Shown here in pieces: positions 1-32,616 of a stretch of 42,911 bases of DNA (its first letter is position 1; each line of letters opens with the position of its first letter). A program made the position numbers and the translations under genes. The notes beneath the pieces are model-generated. The model was not told where the DNA came from and did no database searches. It saw only the letters and a list, made by a program, of their open reading frames with translations. The stretch comes from a virus. The stretch lies in IMG/VR virus record IMGVR_UViG_3300007754_000018, positions 1 through 42,911 of that record. One strand, given 5' to 3'.

Positions 1-268
1 GTTCTTCTAATGCATCTTCTACCATACGATGAAGTGAATGTAACATTTCTTTAACTTCTTTATTATCATCCACAACAGTAACCATATCTTTTACAATTTC
101 AGTTTGTTGAACTCGCATTATAGCGATTTCCTTTTCATTCTCAATAACCTGTTCTATCACTGTGGTATTATTATTTACTTGACTATCAGTGCCTGAGGCC
201 CACCATACGGCTGCGCCTGCTTGAGCAATTATAAAAACACCTAATCCGGTACCTACCCAGTCGTTCAT
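1..268 (-). CDS. Small membrane-anchored coiled-coil protein (3' end outside window)
   Basis: I do not recognise this gene. It reads leftward off the window edge, so only the first 89 codons are visible. The ATG at 266-268 follows a GAGG ribosome-binding sequence six bases upstream, which supports this start. Residues about 4-26 form one hydrophobic segment rich in Gly, Ala and Trp and look like a membrane anchor without a cleavage site. The rest is polar and charged (Glu, Val, Lys, Asp, Met rich) with a heptad-like pattern that suggests a coiled coil. Small proteins with one membrane segment plus a coiled coil occur in phages as spanins, holin-like proteins or cyanophage structural proteins, but nothing here decides among these. 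It follows the 290-1525 gene by 21 bases and probably shares its late transcript. Confidence 0.7.
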   Translation of the reverse strand, partial: MNDWVGTGLGVFIIAQAGAAVWWASGTDSQVNNNTTVIEQVIENEKEIAIMRVQQTEIVKDMVTVVDDNKEVKEMLHSLHRMVEDALEE

Positions 269-289: not shown

Positions 290-1525
290 TTATGTCCAAT
301 TCTTGGCCACCGTGAAGTTGGCCCTACTAAATTCCATCCTATCAACCAACTTCAATGCATTGCCGACATGATCTATGGCCACGAACCCCTCAGGTGCAGT
401 AACCTTATATCCGTCAGACGTTTTTATAAATGATGCTACAGAACTTTTAATTTTTTCAAGTTTTTTTACCATATAATCTTTCGCAACTCTTAATGTTATG
501 TATGATGCGAATACAAAATAAATAGATGTCTTATATTTAGTTAATTCTTTTCGTCCATCATCTAATATTTTTTGATATTGTTTCTTAGCAGCATCACTTC
601 TTACACTATTAATCTTTTTCTCTAACTTATCTACATAAAACTGTTCAAACTCTCCAGCTAATCGTTTGGTGTCTTGAATACCTGCACCAGAACGAATTTG
701 AGAATTGAAAAATATTTTTAAAGATGAACCTACTTCCCAAGGATCATCCTTAGGATTGATTGGTTCTAAAATCTTTAAATAAGATTTGGCCTTCTTCAAA
801 GAACCTCGGGCTATATTCAAAACTCTATTAAACTTATCAACTTCATCAGTAGTCATGGTTACAGTACCCGACTCATCTTGGAAGGTGGCATCAGTAGACC
901 ATACCGCAGTATTCTGTTTCAGTTTAGAACTATCAACACCAAACGATGCGGACAAGGCCGACATAGTATCGCCTGAATAGGTTGTATGCCACACCACACC
1001 TATCCTTGCCCGAGACATAGATTTTTCTAGTTTACTACCTTCTGGTACTGCATAAGTAATCGTATTTGGTGTGAAGGTAATCATACTCTCACCATCAATA
1101 GTTTGAGAAGTCAAATCATCTTTAATAAAGAGTATATCGCCCTGCCATATGCCGGGTATTTTTAATTTCTTAAAATGATCCAAAGCAACATGAAGTTTTG
1201 GTCCGGGGCCACTAGGATGATTCTTATCTATATCTGCATGGGTATAATTTATTTTAGGTGTCTTATTGAAAATAGACTTTGTACCCACAAAAAACTTACC
1301 GTTCTCCGGATTAGTGCCAGCAAAGATGGCAGGTGCACCATCCCATTTCACCGTAACACTAACAGACTTGCCGGTGTGACCCGCCAACATATCCCGCAGA
1401 CTTTCTAGAAAATGAATGGCATTCTCACCACCGACGATACCATTATCTATGATATCATCTTCAAGATGTTCCAGATGAGTATTCCTATCTTCTATTAAAA
1501 AATCTTGAAAATTAAAAGATTTCAT
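290..1525 (-). CDS. Putative nucleotidyltransferase (ligase-like KWDG motif) with a possible capsid-targeting N-terminus
   Basis: The 411-residue protein carries K60-W-D-G63 in the setting VTVKWDGAPAIF, the form of motif I (KxDG) of ATP-dependent DNA/RNA ligases and capping enzymes, where the Lys is adenylylated. GIWQGDILF (125-133) could be motif III. Near the C-terminus, EGFV (379-382) and LKLVD (391-395) resemble motifs IV and V. The spacing between motif III and IV is longer than usual, with a charged helical insertion around 230-365. The N-terminus MKSFNFQDFLIE resembles the T4 capsid-targeting sequence and ends in an L-x-E site of the type cut by the gp21 protease, so it may be packaged in the head. 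The ATG shares one base with the upstream stop (TAATG). Homologues in marine T4-like phages are, as far as I recall, of unknown function, so the enzymatic call is an inference from motifs. Confidence 0.55.
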   Translation of the reverse strand: MKSFNFQDFLIEDRNTHLEHLEDDIIDNGIVGGENAIHFLESLRDMLAGHTGKSVSVTVKWDGAPAIFAGTNPENGKFFVGTKSIFNKTPKINYTHADIDKNHPSGPGPKLHVALDHFKKLKIPGIWQGDILFIKDDLTSQTIDGESMITFTPNTITYAVPEGSKLEKSMSRARIGVVWHTTYSGDTMSALSASFGVDSSKLKQNTAVWSTDATFQDESGTVTMTTDEVDKFNRVLNIARGSLKKAKSYLKILEPINPKDDPWEVGSSLKIFFNSQIRSGAGIQDTKRLAGEFEQFYVDKLEKKINSVRSDAAKKQYQKILDDGRKELTKYKTSIYFVFASYITLRVAKDYMVKKLEKIKSSVASFIKTSDGYKVTAPEGFVAIDHVGNALKLVDRMEFSRANFTVAKNWT

Positions 1526-1941
1526 TATCTTCTTCTAGTTTTAGCCTTAAACCGAGCAGTATCATAATCTATATTTTTTTGATATGTGTCTTGCTGTTTC
1601 TTTTTCATCAAGGTTAGTTTGCGTTTTACTTTAGATGAGTTCAATTGCTGTTTTACATCCATGTATGCTTTTACTTTATACATGAACGCACTTTTCTCAT
1701 CAAGTAAAAAATGATTTGCTACAATATCTAATCCACCGGACTTTGTTTTCTTTGACAGATCAGCTAACTCGTTAGCAATGTTCTGTTGTAAAAAATCAAT
1801 AGACATTGTACCGTAGCCACGAATTGCTACTGTAGGATTCTCTGGATCAAAATCGGGAGCATCCCAATAAATTTCACCAGCACCATATCCTTTAGCTTCG
1901 CCTAATACTCGTTTAATTGCATCTCTTTCTGTTCTATACAT
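1525..1941 (-). CDS. Hypothetical basic protein, late gene
   Basis: This 138-residue protein is not recognised. The ATG at 1939-1941 is preceded by AGGA at a suitable distance. The N-terminal half holds aromatic and acidic residues (IYWDAPDFDPENP) and the C-terminal third is strongly basic with many Lys, Arg and Gln, ending in KAKTRRR, which would suit binding to DNA, RNA or an acidic head core. An L-G-E followed by Ala at residues 13-16 fits the L/I-x-E consensus of T4 gp21 protease cleavage, as in both neighbours. It is translationally coupled to the 290-1525 gene (TAATG overlap) and lies 9 bases after the 1951-3516 gene, so the three form one late unit. Function cannot be given. Confidence 0.75.
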   Translation of the reverse strand: MYRTERDAIKRVLGEAKGYGAGEIYWDAPDFDPENPTVAIRGYGTMSIDFLQQNIANELADLSKKTKSGGLDIVANHFLLDEKSAFMYKVKAYMDVKQQLNSSKVKRKLTLMKKKQQDTYQKNIDYDTARFKAKTRRR

Positions 1942-1950
1942 TTTATGTTC

Positions 1951-3516
1951 CTAAATTCTTACAGTTTGATTCAATAGGGTATCATTGACAATCATTTCAT
2001 ATCCAAAAACAGCTCCTAAAGCTTGAATTCCATCTCTAGCAGCATCTTTAATTTTCTCAATCGCTTCTGTAAAGAAACTTGCAAGTTTAGCACCAAGTTC
2101 TTTAATTTTTGCTACAAAATTACCAGTCAACTCTTTAACTTTATCAAAAAATTTCCATTCAGAAAGATAACCTTCATCTAACTGTTCGTCAAGTTTATTA
2201 TATTCTTCATACAGCATATTTTCAGCATGATCCATTTCTTCCATAAGTTTTCCCACACCAATACGAATAGTCTGAAAAACATTATAACCCTTATGTTTGT
2301 GTGTTGAAGATGATTTCCAACTAACATCTAAATTCATTGTTTTAGCATATTTTCCAACAATACTAGAAGAAGATGATGCTAAATCATAGATTTGAATTTT
2401 AAAGTCTGCAACATTATCAGCCGGTACCCAAGATAACATATAGTGTGCTGCTTGTTTTGAACTTTTACCGAATTTATAATTTCCAGTAGATGCTTCATAT
2501 ACAAATTCTAATTTATATTGATCCGAGGACTTGAAAAGATTATTCAAAGCATCACCTACAGCAGTTGAATTTCTTTTAAATGCTCCATCAACATAACGAG
2601 TAAATTTTTGATTAGTTGCAGATAATGTAGTTTGCAGTTCTTTAGGTTGTGGACCTTTGGCTAATACTTTAGGTAAATCTCGTCCTAAAGTAGGTCTACC
2701 AGTAGTACCTAATTCTCCCACACCGGACCAACCCCTTTTTACTTTCTTGACGGCTTTATATTTTCCTTTTCCACCAACAGCTCCGGGAGGCCAGCGTTTA
2801 GCAAAGTCATCTTCTAATTTTTTAATTTTAGCCTTATCTCTACTTACTTTCTTTTTAGCCTTTTTCAGTTCTTCAAATTCTATATCAAATTTTTCTAATT
2901 CTTTTTTAGAAGCCACAGCTAAATCATATAAAGTTTTATGTCTTCCAGCATCATCTTTTAATCTTTGTAAATTTCCAGCTGATGCATAATATCCTTCAGT
3001 CGTAACTTGACTTAATTTATCTATACTAGAAATAAGTATTTGAACAAGTTCCGAATTTTCAAAATTAGGATTAACTTCTCTAGCCGCCGCAACAGCTGTT
3101 GCTGTAGATTCACCTTTCTTACCGCTCATTAGTTGAGCACCGTCAGCATTCTTTACAGAGTATTGATGTCCACCTAATGTAATATCTGTTTTTGATGTTA
3201 CATTACTACCACCATTCTCTTTCCAAAATGAAGTAAGGGAACCCTTTTCTTGAAAATCAAAGCCACCGCCCTTAGGAGCTCCAGCATTAATTATATTTTG
3301 ACCAAATATTTGTAAATTCTTTAGGTCTGCTGTAGGATTACCAGTATTCCAATATTTTTTTGCCTTTTTAAAATTTCCATCATCGGCCATTGCATCTTTT
3401 AGGATTTTAGGTTTACCTTTAGATACTGATTCATACGCAACACCCAATACAGTTTCTAATGCTGTAGAAACTTCTGTAGATTCCTCATACAGCATATGTT
3501 GTTTAAAAGATTTCAT
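1951..3516 (-). CDS. Large late protein with possible nuclease-like motif and capsid-targeting-like N-terminus
   Basis: The ATG at 3514-3516 is chosen over an upstream in-frame TTG at 3528 because GGAG lies six bases before it and the sequence then begins MKSFKQHMLYE, parallel to the start of the 290-1525 protein. L-Y-E fits the gp21 protease site. About 110-135 residues in, a segment SKTDITLGG followed by YSVKN and QLMSG has the D-x(n)-x-x-K spacing of PD-(D/E)XK nucleases, followed by a Gly/Ser patch, but the intermediate acidic residue is not obvious. The middle is highly charged with a Lys-rich coiled-coil stretch (about residues 205-245), then a basic Gly-rich region, and the C-terminus has a hydrophobic/amphipathic segment. 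A late promoter lies 23 bases upstream. I cannot assign a function; packaging into the head is an inference. Confidence 0.7.
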   Translation of the reverse strand: MKSFKQHMLYEESTEVSTALETVLGVAYESVSKGKPKILKDAMADDGNFKKAKKYWNTGNPTADLKNLQIFGQNIINAGAPKGGGFDFQEKGSLTSFWKENGGSNVTSKTDITLGGHQYSVKNADGAQLMSGKKGESTATAVAAAREVNPNFENSELVQILISSIDKLSQVTTEGYYASAGNLQRLKDDAGRHKTLYDLAVASKKELEKFDIEFEELKKAKKKVSRDKAKIKKLEDDFAKRWPPGAVGGKGKYKAVKKVKRGWSGVGELGTTGRPTLGRDLPKVLAKGPQPKELQTTLSATNQKFTRYVDGAFKRNSTAVGDALNNLFKSSDQYKLEFVYEASTGNYKFGKSSKQAAHYMLSWVPADNVADFKIQIYDLASSSSSIVGKYAKTMNLDVSWKSSSTHKHKGYNVFQTIRIGVGKLMEEMDHAENMLYEEYNKLDEQLDEGYLSEWKFFDKVKELTGNFVAKIKELGAKLASFFTEAIEKIKDAARDGIQALGAVFGYEMIVNDTLLNQTVRI

Positions 3517-6773: not shown

Positions 6774-6924
6774 TTATTTCTTCCCTCTCATTTTCTGCAT
6801 AACCGATGCAGTATTCAATAATATTATCTTTATAAGTATACAACATTTTTTTCACTTCGTCAATAGCCTCACTAGGAAGATATATAGTTTTTTTACCTTG
6901 TCTCGTCCATATAGTTAGCATCAT
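6745..6924 (-). CDS. Small overlapping protein between C5 methyltransferase and uvsX
   Basis: A 59-residue reading frame. Its ATG (6922-6924) overlaps the stop of the methyltransferase gene in the ATGA form, and its stop (6745-6747) lies 29 bases inside uvsX. The peptide begins [20 protein letters not shown] and continues with an amphipathic, acidic helix-like segment ([26 protein letters not shown]). The start geometry and the fact that it fills the whole gap between two operon genes support it being real. No family is recognised. Confidence 0.7.
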
Positions 6925-8060
6925 AGTTTAGAAAGTACCTTGTTATAAACTGATTCTGCTATCGCCTTCATCATTAGACTTGGCACCATTCGACCACACC
7001 GTTCGGCCTTCTGATTGAATGTACCGGTCAACTTAAAGTCATCAGGCAAACTTGTAATACGCATCAGTTCCTTGATAGTAAACTTTCTATCTTCACACCA
7101 ATGTACCGCACCCGCTGTAGTCATAGCAGAACCCATGGCCGTAATAGTAGGGGCAGGAACTAAAGCAGAAGTTTTCTTACAACTAAAATGTAAATTCTTT
7201 TTACCAACATTCTCGCCACTAATAACCTTATCCGGATTTTGTGGAAACATATAACCAGTCTTTTTATGAAAGGCTGTATTAGTCCACTTCTCAGTAAGCA
7301 TATTTACTTCTTCTTGATCCAGTTCTAAATTTTCCATAGCCGCCGCAAGAGGAATAATCTCTTTACTCTCTGTAGGGAATACACTGTGAATATTCATAAA
7401 GGACATTCCAACCTTGGCCGTGATGTCTTTTCTCAAAGCAATGAAGATAGTCCTAGTCCTCGACTGTGCAACACCAAAATGTTTTGCATTGAGAACTTTA
7501 GAACAAACATCATAACCGATATTGTCAAACTCGTTTATAATACGATGATAGTATTCCTTCGCCTCTCCAATAGTAAGGCCTTTGACATTTTCACCAACAA
7601 TAACTTTTGGTTGAATGTCTTTGGCAACTCGTAGAAACTCAAAAAACAAATCTTCAATATTTTCTACTTCTTGCTCGTCGGAGTAGTGTTTCTTTTTTCC
7701 AAAGCCAGCCTTATGACTTCCGCCGTGATGTGTAAAGCCCCGTCCCGCAATACTAAATGCTGAACACGGTGGAGACCCATCTAATAGGTCTAACTCCCCT
7801 ACACCTATTCCAGCGACCTCTAGAATGTCCGCTCCTGACAATTTCTTGATATCGTCGGGGATAATAGGGGTACTAGGATAGTTGGCCGCATATGTCTCCC
7901 TCGCCGCTTGGACAAATTCATTTATCGCCAATATCTTTCCACCTGCAAGTCTATAACCTGTAGACGACCCACCACCACCGGCGAATGTAGAAATAACTGA
8001 GAATAAGTTTTTATTCTCTCCCTGGTAGACATCGTTCATTGTATATGGTTTATATTTCAT
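6921..8060 (-). CDS. DNA cytosine-C5 methyltransferase (copy 1)
   Basis: Transfers a methyl group from SAM to carbon 5 of cytosine. Motif I is FAGGGGSSTG (27-36), motif IV GSPPCSAFS with the catalytic C99, motif VI GENVKG with ENV at 157-159, and motif VIII QSRTR (199-203). A target-recognition region of about 110 residues follows, then motif IX/X segments (IKELMRITSLPDDF, GRMVPSLMMKAIAESVYNKVL). All catalytic motifs are intact in 379 residues. Its ATG overlaps the stop of gene 43 (ATGA). It is clearly paralogous to the methyltransferase at 15432-16547. No restriction partner is visible, so protection of phage DNA or a first step to a further modification is more likely than a restriction system. 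Confidence 0.93.
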   Translation of the reverse strand: MKYKPYTMNDVYQGENKNLFSVISTFAGGGGSSTGYRLAGGKILAINEFVQAARETYAANYPSTPIIPDDIKKLSGADILEVAGIGVGELDLLDGSPPCSAFSIAGRGFTHHGGSHKAGFGKKKHYSDEQEVENIEDLFFEFLRVAKDIQPKVIVGENVKGLTIGEAKEYYHRIINEFDNIGYDVCSKVLNAKHFGVAQSRTRTIFIALRKDITAKVGMSFMNIHSVFPTESKEIIPLAAAMENLELDQEEVNMLTEKWTNTAFHKKTGYMFPQNPDKVISGENVGKKNLHFSCKKTSALVPAPTITAMGSAMTTAGAVHWCEDRKFTIKELMRITSLPDDFKLTGTFNQKAERCGRMVPSLMMKAIAESVYNKVLSKL

Positions 8061-15431: not shown

Positions 15432-16547
15432 TCAACTTGATAATAATATCTTATTATACACGGATGTAGCCAAACTTGCAATACATTTTGGAGCGACCAT
15501 CCGTCCAATTCGCTCCGCCTTTTGATTAAATGTACCTTCCAAAATAAAATCATCTGGAAGACCTTGAACTCTTTTTAGTTCTTTGATAGTTAGTTTTCTA
15601 TCTAACTCATAATGTATCACACCAGACAAACCCTTCTGCTGTCCTTGCTGTGTGATAGTGGGACTAGGTAAATTAGGACACGGACGTATCAAATTAAACA
15701 AACTTTGATTAGGATGATACTCCGAACCCTTTACTTGTCTTTCTGGATTCTTTGGCAGTTTAGGTATCCAGTCGTTTAGAAAACCCTTTGCAACTGCCTC
15801 ATACAATTCCTTTTCTTCCTCAGGGTCATTCTCTATATCATGTATCGCTTCATATAATGAAACGTGTTCCCTATGTGTCGGTGTCGGGTAAATACTTTCA
15901 AGCGTCATAAAGTTTAGAGAAGTCTTGGCCAGGATATCATTTCTTATTGCAACAAAGAAACATCTTTCCCGTGCCTGCGGTGTCCCATAGTCGGCCGCAT
16001 TGAGTGACTTACCTACTGCCGTATAACCAATGTCTTGAAACGCATTGATGATACGGTTGAAGTATTCCTTTGCCTTACCAAACATTATTGACTTTACATT
16101 CTCGCCAATAATAACCTTAGGTTGTATATCGTTAGCAACACGGATAAACTCAAAGAACAAATCCTCAACGCCTTTGACCTTTCCCTTGTCACTATAATTC
16201 TTTTCTTGACCCCATCCCTTCTCTCTACGGCCGGCAATACTAAACGCCGAACAGGGTGGAGAACCATCTAATATATCCAGTTCACCTTTGCCCAGTGAAG
16301 TCATATCCAACAGGTCACTGCCAGTCAAATAATTAATGTCACCATCAACAAAGGGTGTGCCTGGGTAGTTGGCCAAATAAGTTTCTTGAGCAGACTCCAC
16401 AAACTCGTTTACACATAGAATGTCTCCACCTGCAAGTTTATAACCTGTAGATGACCCACCGCCACCAGCAAATGTAGAGATAACTGTAAACAGTTTTCTC
16501 TCTGCTGATTGCTTTACATCATTCAATGTGTAGGGTTGATAAATCAA
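15432..16547 (-). CDS. DNA cytosine-C5 methyltransferase (copy 2)
   Basis: Paralogue of the enzyme at 6921-8060, similar from the first residues (PYTLNDV...TVISTFAGGGGSSTGYKLAGG). Motif I FAGGGGSSTG (27-36), motif IV GSPPCSAFS (C99), motif VI GENVKS (ENV 149-151) and motif VIII QARERC are intact. The target-recognition segment between motif VIII and IX differs strongly from copy 1, which predicts a different target sequence. No ATG is available near the expected N-terminus; the start is probably TTG at 16545-16547, so translation may be weak. It lies between the ParB-like gene and the unknown gene, splitting the clamp-loader genes 44 and 62. Confidence 0.92.
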   Translation of the reverse strand: MIYQPYTLNDVKQSAERKLFTVISTFAGGGGSSTGYKLAGGDILCVNEFVESAQETYLANYPGTPFVDGDINYLTGSDLLDMTSLGKGELDILDGSPPCSAFSIAGRREKGWGQEKNYSDKGKVKGVEDLFFEFIRVANDIQPKVIIGENVKSIMFGKAKEYFNRIINAFQDIGYTAVGKSLNAADYGTPQARERCFFVAIRNDILAKTSLNFMTLESIYPTPTHREHVSLYEAIHDIENDPEEEKELYEAVAKGFLNDWIPKLPKNPERQVKGSEYHPNQSLFNLIRPCPNLPSPTITQQGQQKGLSGVIHYELDRKLTIKELKRVQGLPDDFILEGTFNQKAERIGRMVAPKCIASLATSVYNKILLSS

Positions 16548-31971: not shown

Positions 31972-32616
31972 TTATAACTTTGAAAGGAAATCTTCCCAGA
32001 CCTTCAACTGCGCAACTGCACGATCTTTACGCTGAGAGTCAATTTCCCTGTAATAATTTTCAATATCTACTTCTTTAACGATACCATTGTCCCAAATCCA
32101 TTCCTTACCTTCCATGATACCTTCCACGAAAGCATTAGGAGCCGATGGGTCTGCTACGATATCAGCAGCCGTTGCGAGATAAAAATCATCTCTTACATAC
32201 TGCGCACCTTTTTTGGGCTCCAGAGAACCCATACCTCTAGAGGAGACACCAAGTTGAGCGCCTTCATCTATAAGATTCTTTACAATCTTTCCATAAGGAG
32301 TATCCATGATTTTAGCTTCGCCCATAAAGTTATTATCATCGGGCCAAAGATTAGTAATCATGTGTGACACTCTTTCAAGATTGACTGTAGGGCCGTCGGG
32401 ATGTCCTAACTCCCCGAAGGCACGTTTTTTCTGAATAAACTCCTTATTATATCGACTTACTTCTTTCTGTAAAACTGGATAAGGATATACTCTACCATTA
32501 CGATTCTTAACATCGGCCTGTAGAAAAACGCCACGGATTTTATAATCCTTACCGCCACCATCTTTAGCTTCAGTAATATATTCAATATTTTCGATATGTT
32601 CGGAAATAAGTTTCAT
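31972..32616 (-). CDS. 21: Prohead core protease (T4 gp21)
   Basis: Serine protease that processes the head proteins after L/I-x-E. The start at 32614-32616 follows GAGGAA; upstream in-frame codons overlap the preceding gene. The 214 residues include GELGHPDGP (68-76, catalytic H72) and GVSSRGMG (123-130, catalytic Ser). LWPDDNNFMGEAKIMDTPYGK is typical of the family. The N-terminus MKLISEHIENIEYITEA holds its own I-T-E site, so self-processing is likely. Two other proteins in this window begin with similar short sequences (see 290-1525 and 1951-3516). Confidence 0.95.
   Translation of the reverse strand: MKLISEHIENIEYITEAKDGGGKDYKIRGVFLQADVKNRNGRVYPYPVLQKEVSRYNKEFIQKKRAFGELGHPDGPTVNLERVSHMITNLWPDDNNFMGEAKIMDTPYGKIVKNLIDEGAQLGVSSRGMGSLEPKKGAQYVRDDFYLATAADIVADPSAPNAFVEGIMEGKEWIWDNGIVKEVDIENYYREIDSQRKDRAVAQLKVWEDFLSKL

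What the first reader, a model, noticed from the sequence alone, without database searches (positions are those of the whole stretch)
290..1525. Ligase-like nucleotidyltransferase that may be packaged in the phage head
Seen: KWDG in the context of motif I, with EGFV and LKLVD near the C-terminus resembling motifs IV and V, and a start MKSFNFQDFLIE ending in an L-x-E protease site. Known: T4 packages internal proteins such as Alt and IPIII via a short N-terminal targeting peptide (MKTYQEFIAE in IPIII) removed by gp21. Inference: a covalent nucleotidyltransferase (RNA/DNA ligase, capping-like or other nucleotide-transfer enzyme) made late and injected with the DNA.
Basis: partly seen in the sequence, partly recalled or inferred. 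Interest (0 to 1): 0.8.

Follow-up and report, generated by a model that had tools for sequence, protein, structure and literature searches.

The report
Ligase-like enzyme, probably packaged in phage
A widespread but uncharacterised protein of marine T4-like phages has the shape and active-site layout of enzymes that join nucleic acids, and most of its relatives start with the short address tag that T4 uses to load proteins into the phage head, so it may be injected into the host along with the phage DNA.

Summary
Window 290-1525 (-) encodes 411 aa with KWDG (K60), EGFV (E379) and KLVD (K392), and begins MKSFNFQDFLIE. It is Pfam DUF6267 (PF19782, E 2.7e-117, unknown function; "T4-LIKE GC 71"). 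K60/D62/G63, Q128/D130, E379/G380 and K392 are invariant across 79 homologues. AlphaFold models (pLDDT 87; 92 for a compact homologue) put them in the strand order of covalent nucleotidyltransferases. Foldseek with the compact model returns ligases or capping enzymes in nearly all of the top 50 PDB hits, but none reaches E<0.001. Profile-profile sequence comparison with ligases is not significant. The leader follows the T4 IPIII capsid-targeting rule (residues 4, 7, 8, 10) in about half of 95 distinct leaders, against 0.6 expected by shuffling. The window encodes its own gp21-type protease. Three virion-detected HIGH-type cytidylyltransferases, the conserved downstream neighbour, carry the same leader (MKKFSAFLNEA, MKNFSSFLTEA, MKSFLQFLKEA). 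The upstream slot is hypervariable, often with a PD-(D/E)XK-like motif. I conclude it is a divergent ligase-superfamily enzyme, probably packaged. Its substrate and its own presence in virions are unproven. Cyanophage orthologues and the compact subfamily lack the leader, and one marine clade lacks the cleavage Glu.

The parts
290..1525 (-). DUF6267 protein, 411 aa, candidate covalent nucleotidyltransferase
   Evidence: Pfam PF19782 E 2.7e-117; phrog_455, unknown function; 468 phage records by tblastn
1490..1525 (-). Capsid-targeting-like leader MKSFNFQDFLIE (residues 1-12); predicted cleavage after E12
   Evidence: F6/F9/L10/E12 match the T4 IPIII rule of residues 4/7/8/10 (PMC9026906) with two residues inserted; residues 1-16 have pLDDT <50 in the model; leader survey
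1337..1348 (-). Motif I, KWDG, residues 60-63 (K60 = predicted nucleotidylated lysine)
   Evidence: K60, D62, G63 invariant in A2; K60 ends strand 56-60 and strand 66-71 follows
1136..1144 (-). Motif III-like QGD, residues 128-130
   Evidence: Q128 and D130 invariant, within strand 126-134
455..850 (-). Helical insert, residues about 226-357, between the core strands and motif IV
   Evidence: Helices 226-357 in the model; much shorter in compact homologues
380..391 (-). Motif IV, EGFV, residues 379-382
   Evidence: E379 and G380 invariant, strand 380-384
341..355 (-). Motif V-like LKLVD, residues 391-395
   Evidence: K392 invariant, strand 390-393
1525..1941 (-). Small upstream gene, 138 aa, stop overlaps the start of DUF6267 (TAATG)
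   Evidence: no family match
1951..3516 (-). Upstream variable-slot protein, 521 aa, starts MKSFKQHMLYEE, contains KTDITLGGHQYSVKN (PD-(D/E)XK-like D...xK)
   Evidence: motif-level inference only, no significant Pfam, PHROG, PADLOC or NCBIfam match
1..268 (-). Downstream small membrane protein MNDWVGTGLG... (cut by the window edge); in the identical locus L001 a HIGH-type cytidylyltransferase follows
   Evidence: CTP_transf_like E 5e-6
31975..32616 (-). gp21-type prohead protease, candidate processing enzyme for the leader
   Evidence: Peptidase_S77, E 2.5e-34

Best explanation
The gene encodes a divergent member of the covalent (lysine-NMP) nucleotidyltransferase superfamily, most likely a polynucleotide ligase-type enzyme, with a helical domain inserted between motif III and motif IV and no OB-fold domain. 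In this phage it is made with an N-terminal capsid-targeting leader, loaded into the prohead core, cut after Glu12 by the phage's gp21-type protease, and delivered with the DNA. There it would act early, together with co-packaged neighbours (a variable nuclease-like protein and a HIGH-type adenylyl/cytidylyltransferase). Shown: conserved motifs, confident fold models, leader pattern, presence of the protease, synteny, and virion detection of leader-bearing neighbours in three cyanophages. Inferred: catalysis through K60, substrate, cleavage, packaging of this particular protein, and its role in the host.
For: Invariant KxDG, QGD (D130), EG and K in 79 long and 45 compact homologues. AlphaFold models at pLDDT 87 and 92 put K60 at the end of a strand, followed by a strand, with motifs III, IV and V on strands. 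Foldseek PDB with the compact model: ranks 1-16 are all ATP-dependent DNA ligases (best probability 0.60, E 0.03), and DNA ligases, RNA ligases and capping enzymes make up most of the rest of the top 50. In BFVD, the first annotated hit outside the family is an RNA ligase (probability 0.80, E 0.011). Leader: 51 of 95 distinct leaders match, against 0.59 expected. gp21 protease in the window. The downstream HIGH NTase is conserved in 69 of 80 long-subfamily loci and fused to DUF6267 in S-PM2-type and other phages. Leader-bearing HIGH NTases were detected in virions of S-SM1 (PMC3037559; leader), S-CREM2 (PMC10665884; leader) and S-SCSM1 (PMC9602691; leader). The S-SCSM1 upstream-slot homologue is recorded as a virion protein.
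Against: No PDB Foldseek hit has E<0.001 and TM-scores are low. hhalign to Rnl1, Rnl2, gp30 and PF01068 is not significant and no better than controls. Motif V lacks the second lysine, and motif III has Asp where ligases have Glu. DUF6267 itself was not found in any virion list I could read. Cyanophage and compact homologues lack the leader, and 21 of 107 N-termini (the MFSFKGF clade) lack the cleavage Glu. The leader regular expression also matches UvsX N-termini, so a match alone is not proof. Leader on DUF6267 and leader on the upstream gene are only weakly associated (Fisher p 0.046 with a loose pattern, 0.74 strict).
Confidence: 0.58

Rival explanations
1. It is a ligase-type nucleotidyltransferase that works in the infected cell and is not packaged; the N-terminal peptide does something else, such as binding a clamp or partner.
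For: It lies beside gp41, UvsX and gp43. Cyanophage and compact homologues have no leader. One clade keeps the aromatic residues but loses the Glu. The same pattern matches UvsX N-termini.
Against: The pattern fits the mapped IPIII targeting and processing positions, and three proteins of the same cluster with such leaders were detected in virions.
Confidence: 0.22
2. It has the fold but has been repurposed: a non-catalytic or differently catalytic partner (for example one that binds or modifies the variable upstream protein or the HIGH enzyme), packaged as part of a complex.
For: Motif V lacks its second lysine and motif III has Asp; it is fused to the HIGH NTase in several phages; it sits next to a hypervariable slot; additional invariant His, Asn and Tyr residues are not part of the ligase motifs.
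Against: The lysine, Asp-Gly and motif IV Glu-Gly are strictly invariant across very diverse homologues, which is unusual for a dead enzyme.
Confidence: 0.13
3. It is not a nucleotidyltransferase; the motif resemblance and weak structural matches are superficial.
For: No significant sequence homology and no PDB fold match below E 0.001.
Against: The compact model's top hits are overwhelmingly one superfamily out of 350,542 chains, and the same superfamily appears independently in BFVD.
Confidence: 0.07

Closest known systems
DUF6267 (Pfam PF19782; phrog_455; T4-LIKE GC 71)
   Same: Full-length family match; this protein is a member
   Different: The family has no assigned function; I propose one, and describe a leader that only some lineages carry
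ATP-dependent DNA ligases and RNA ligases (Rnl1, Rnl2, Naegleria type) and mRNA capping guanylyltransferases
   Same: KxDG, EG(F/Y)V and a motif V lysine in the same order on matching strands; closest folds in PDB and among viral models
   Different: No detectable sequence homology; QGD in place of the usual motif III Glu; one motif V lysine; helical insert before motif IV; no OB domain
T4 internal head proteins IPI-IPIII and Alt (capsid-targeting sequence, gp21 cleavage)
   Same: N-terminal leader with aromatic/hydrophobic residues at the targeting positions and LxE at the cleavage position; gp21-type protease encoded in the same window
   Different: Unrelated body; none of those is a ligase; packaging of this protein is not shown
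NMNAT-like/HIGH cytidylyltransferases of cyanophages (T4-GC190)
   Same: Conserved neighbour or fusion partner, same kind of leader, detected in virions
   Different: Different fold and motif (HIGH); a genomic partner, not a homologue

Membership tests
DUF6267 (PF19782) | Profile match over the curated cut-off | tested here: met
   392.8 bits, cut-off 27, positions 1-376 of 376
Covalent nucleotidyltransferase (ligase/capping) superfamily | Motif I KxDG conserved | tested here: met
   invariant
Covalent nucleotidyltransferase (ligase/capping) superfamily | Motif III with acidic residue on a strand | tested here: inconclusive
   QGD, with Asp rather than Glu, D130 invariant on strand 126-134
Covalent nucleotidyltransferase (ligase/capping) superfamily | Motif IV EGxV | tested here: met
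   E379 and G380 invariant, V382 nearly so
Covalent nucleotidyltransferase (ligase/capping) superfamily | Motif V KxK | tested here: inconclusive
   first lysine invariant; second position is Val, with an invariant Arg396 nearby
Covalent nucleotidyltransferase (ligase/capping) superfamily | Shared fold | tested here: inconclusive
   nearly all top-50 PDB hits of the compact model belong to the superfamily, but best E is 0.03 and best probability 0.60; BFVD RNA ligases
Covalent nucleotidyltransferase (ligase/capping) superfamily | Significant sequence or profile homology | tested here: not met
   hhalign local probability at most 1.1% against the four ligase families, like controls; this does not exclude distant homology
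DNA ligase / capping enzyme | C-terminal OB-fold domain | tested here: not met
   only one helix follows motif V in both models
Covalent nucleotidyltransferase (ligase/capping) superfamily | Lysine-NMP intermediate | not testable with these tools
   needs biochemistry
T4-type capsid-targeted internal protein | Leader with determinants at positions 4, 7, 8, 10 and a [LI]xE cleavage site | tested here: met
   in this protein with two inserted residues
T4-type capsid-targeted internal protein | gp21-type protease in the phage | tested here: met
   window 31975-32616, Peptidase_S77
T4-type capsid-targeted internal protein | Presence in virion with processed N-terminus | not testable with these tools
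   only neighbours, three of them with the same leader, are recorded in virions

The most novel reading that the evidence does not exclude
Marine T4-like phages carry a virion-borne cut-and-join kit: a hypervariable PD-(D/E)XK-like nuclease, a new ligase family (DUF6267), a HIGH-type nucleotidyltransferase and sometimes leader-bearing P-loop kinases, addressed to the head by T4-type leaders or by association, and injected at the start of infection to act on host, competitor or damaged phage nucleic acid.
Probability: 0.3. Interest if true: 0.85.

Novelty: new variant of a known kind. Interest (0 to 1): 0.64.

Why it matters
DUF6267 is in at least 468 sequenced phage records and more than 500 viral contigs, with no assigned function and no paper found in the library searched. 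If right, it would be a new, structurally divergent ligase-type family carried inside virions. Known T4 internal proteins include an ADP-ribosyltransferase and a restriction inhibitor, not ligases (from general knowledge). It would also give a simple sequence rule for predicting which enzymes marine T4-like phages inject, testable with existing cyanophage virion proteomes, and would explain why NMNAT/cytidylyltransferases keep appearing in cyanophage virions.

Tried and rejected
Full-length Foldseek was uninformative because the helical insert dominates, so I modelled a compact homologue. phmmer/hmmsearch against PDB gave nothing. hhalign against T4 Rnl1, Rnl2, gp30 and bacterial/archaeal PF01068 ligases was not significant; the best local segments did fall on motif IV (Rnl1) and motif I (PF01068), but with probability near or below 1%. 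The -glob hit to the HIGH control set was set aside as an artefact: the HIGH alignment run did not give a usable local result, and I take the match to reflect DUF6267-derived sequence inside that single-linkage set. An association between the leader on DUF6267 and the leader on its upstream neighbour was tested and is weak. A strict leader scan of HTVC008M found no match at an annotated gene start of this cluster: its DUF6267 starts MYNDLLVED, LxE only, so the full pattern is not present in every relative. PADLOC and NCBIfam gave no informative match. A literature search for DUF6267 found no paper. The kinship search in genomes is not available for a virus record.

Full report
What is there. 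The ORF at window 290-1525 on the minus strand encodes 411 aa. Its ATG overlaps the stop of the gene before it as TAATG, so the start is well supported. It is a full-length member of Pfam DUF6267 (PF19782, E 2.7e-117) and of phrog_455, both of unknown function; cyanophage annotators call it T4-LIKE GC 71. tblastn finds it in 468 phage records, mostly cyanophages but also Pelagibacter, Methylophilales, Vibrio, Pseudoalteromonas and Stenotrophomonas phages. More than 500 viral contigs carry relatives. Hits in genome assemblies are nearly all metagenome-assembled genomes, which I take to be mostly phage contigs.

Motifs. In 79 diverse homologues the invariant residues are H17, H20, K60, D62, G63, P65, K83, Q128, D130, P153, N154, Y158, H180, T181, Y183, N274, K349, E379, G380, K392, R396, F399 and N403. 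A compact subfamily of about 300 aa, with no leader and a much shorter helical part, keeps the same set. In the order of ligase motifs: K60xDG is motif I, QGD 128-130 stands where motif III would be (Asp rather than Glu), EGFV is motif IV, and K392 is the first lysine of motif V; the second lysine is missing.

Fold. AlphaFold on the window protein gives pLDDT 87, with residues 1-16 at low confidence; the compact homologue gives pLDDT 92. K60 ends strand 56-60 and strand 66-71 follows the loop; QGD is on strand 126-134; EGFV leads strand 380-384; K392 is on strand 390-393. A helical insert (226-357) separates the core strands from motif IV, and nothing like an OB domain follows motif V. Foldseek of the full model is dominated by the helices. 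With the compact model, ranks 1-16 in PDB are all ATP-dependent DNA ligases, and most of the top 50 are DNA ligases, RNA ligases and capping enzymes, but the best E-value is 0.03, the best probability 0.60, and TM-scores are low. Among viral models the first annotated hit outside the family is an RNA ligase (probability 0.80). Profile-profile comparison with Rnl1, Rnl2, gp30 and PF01068 ligases is not significant and resembles the controls. I read this as probable distant membership in the covalent nucleotidyltransferase superfamily, supported by motifs plus fold, not by sequence statistics.

Leader. A review of T4 head assembly states that for IPIII targeting lies mainly at residues 4 and 7 and processing at residues 8 and 10 (PMC9026906). 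Homologues show just that layout in great variety: MRTFTTFLTE, MKTFRQYLTE, MNRFAQYISE, MQGFQDYLVE. Of 95 distinct leaders, 51 match the pattern, against 0.59 expected by shuffling within leaders. In an earlier tally of 107 N-termini, 50 had the full pattern, 17 LxE only, 21 aromatic residues without the Glu (the MFSFKGF clade), and 8 no leader. Cyanophage orthologues (S-PM2, P-HM1, S-SM1) and the compact subfamily have none. A caution: the same regular expression matches UvsX N-termini, so a match alone proves little. The window encodes a gp21-type protease at 31975-32616, as well as gp22-like scaffold, gp23 and portal.

Neighbours. The identical locus L001 continues past the window edge with a small membrane protein and then a HIGH-type cytidylyltransferase. 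Such an enzyme lies within 6 kb downstream in 69 of 80 long-subfamily loci, and is fused to DUF6267 in some phages. Three such enzymes detected in virions by mass spectrometry carry the leader: S-SM1 MKKFSAFLNEA (PMC3037559), S-CREM2 MKNFSSFLTEA (PMC10665884), and S-SCSM1 MKSFLQFLKEA (PMC9602691). The authors of the last two note that carry-over during CsCl purification cannot be excluded. In the window's own phage the HIGH enzyme starts MKMTFAFGRF, without a leader, while DUF6267 has one; in S-SM1 it is the reverse. The gene before DUF6267 is a hypervariable slot filled by many unrelated clusters, often with a D...(S/E)xK motif suggestive of PD-(D/E)XK nucleases; in S-SCSM1 its homologue is recorded as a virion protein, although it has no leader. 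The window's own slot protein starts MKSFKQHMLYEE and contains KTDITLGGHQYSVKN.

Conclusion. The most likely account is a divergent ligase-type nucleotidyltransferase that this phage packages through a T4-type leader and injects. I give 0.58 to the combined statement. That it is some member of the covalent nucleotidyltransferase superfamily I would put near 0.8 or a little above; that this protein is packaged near 0.7. Substrate and role are open: sealing of nicks in injected or host nucleic acid, repair after cleavage by the co-packaged nuclease-like protein, or modification of a protein are all possible.

Noticed in passing
window 1951-3516 (-) and the -1/-2 genes of L003-L135: The gene upstream of DUF6267 is a hypervariable slot with many unrelated protein clusters, many having D...(S/E)xK nuclease-like motifs and capsid-targeting-like leaders.
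   Followed up: partly
L102 9655-10920, L133 9194-10471, L039 4815-5399, L127 9484-10089: Capsid-targeting-like leaders also occur on HIGH nucleotidyltransferases (one fused to an AAA_33 kinase, as in NadR), adenylate-kinase-like proteins and a HAD-like protein near DUF6267.
   Followed up: partly
L141 1828-4635, L142 309-3101: A 930-aa phage-like protein in a Firmicutes MAG fuses DUF6267, a HIGH nucleotidyltransferase and a C-terminal PD-(D/E)XK-like stretch (TGGAGDVKIGDYQVEVKSCRR).
   Followed up: no
L146-L225: A compact DUF6267 subfamily (about 300 aa, no leader) is very abundant in viral contigs and is mostly not next to a HIGH nucleotidyltransferase (4 of 33 with enough flank).
   Followed up: partly
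window 6924-8060 (-) and 15435-16532 (-): Two C-5 cytosine DNA methyltransferase genes in one phage fragment, both significant (E about 1e-53).
   Followed up: no
L023 5992-7771 (S-PM2 AJ630128): In the older S-PM2 record DUF6267 is split between p138 and the 'cytitidyltransferase' p139, while a 591-aa S-PM2 protein in BFVD is fused, so the older record may hold a frameshift.
   Followed up: no
BFVD H8ZNG8 (phage metaG-MbCM1): A 728-aa DUF6267-cytidylyltransferase protein is annotated as 'NrdB ribonucleotide reductase', apparently a misannotation.
   Followed up: no
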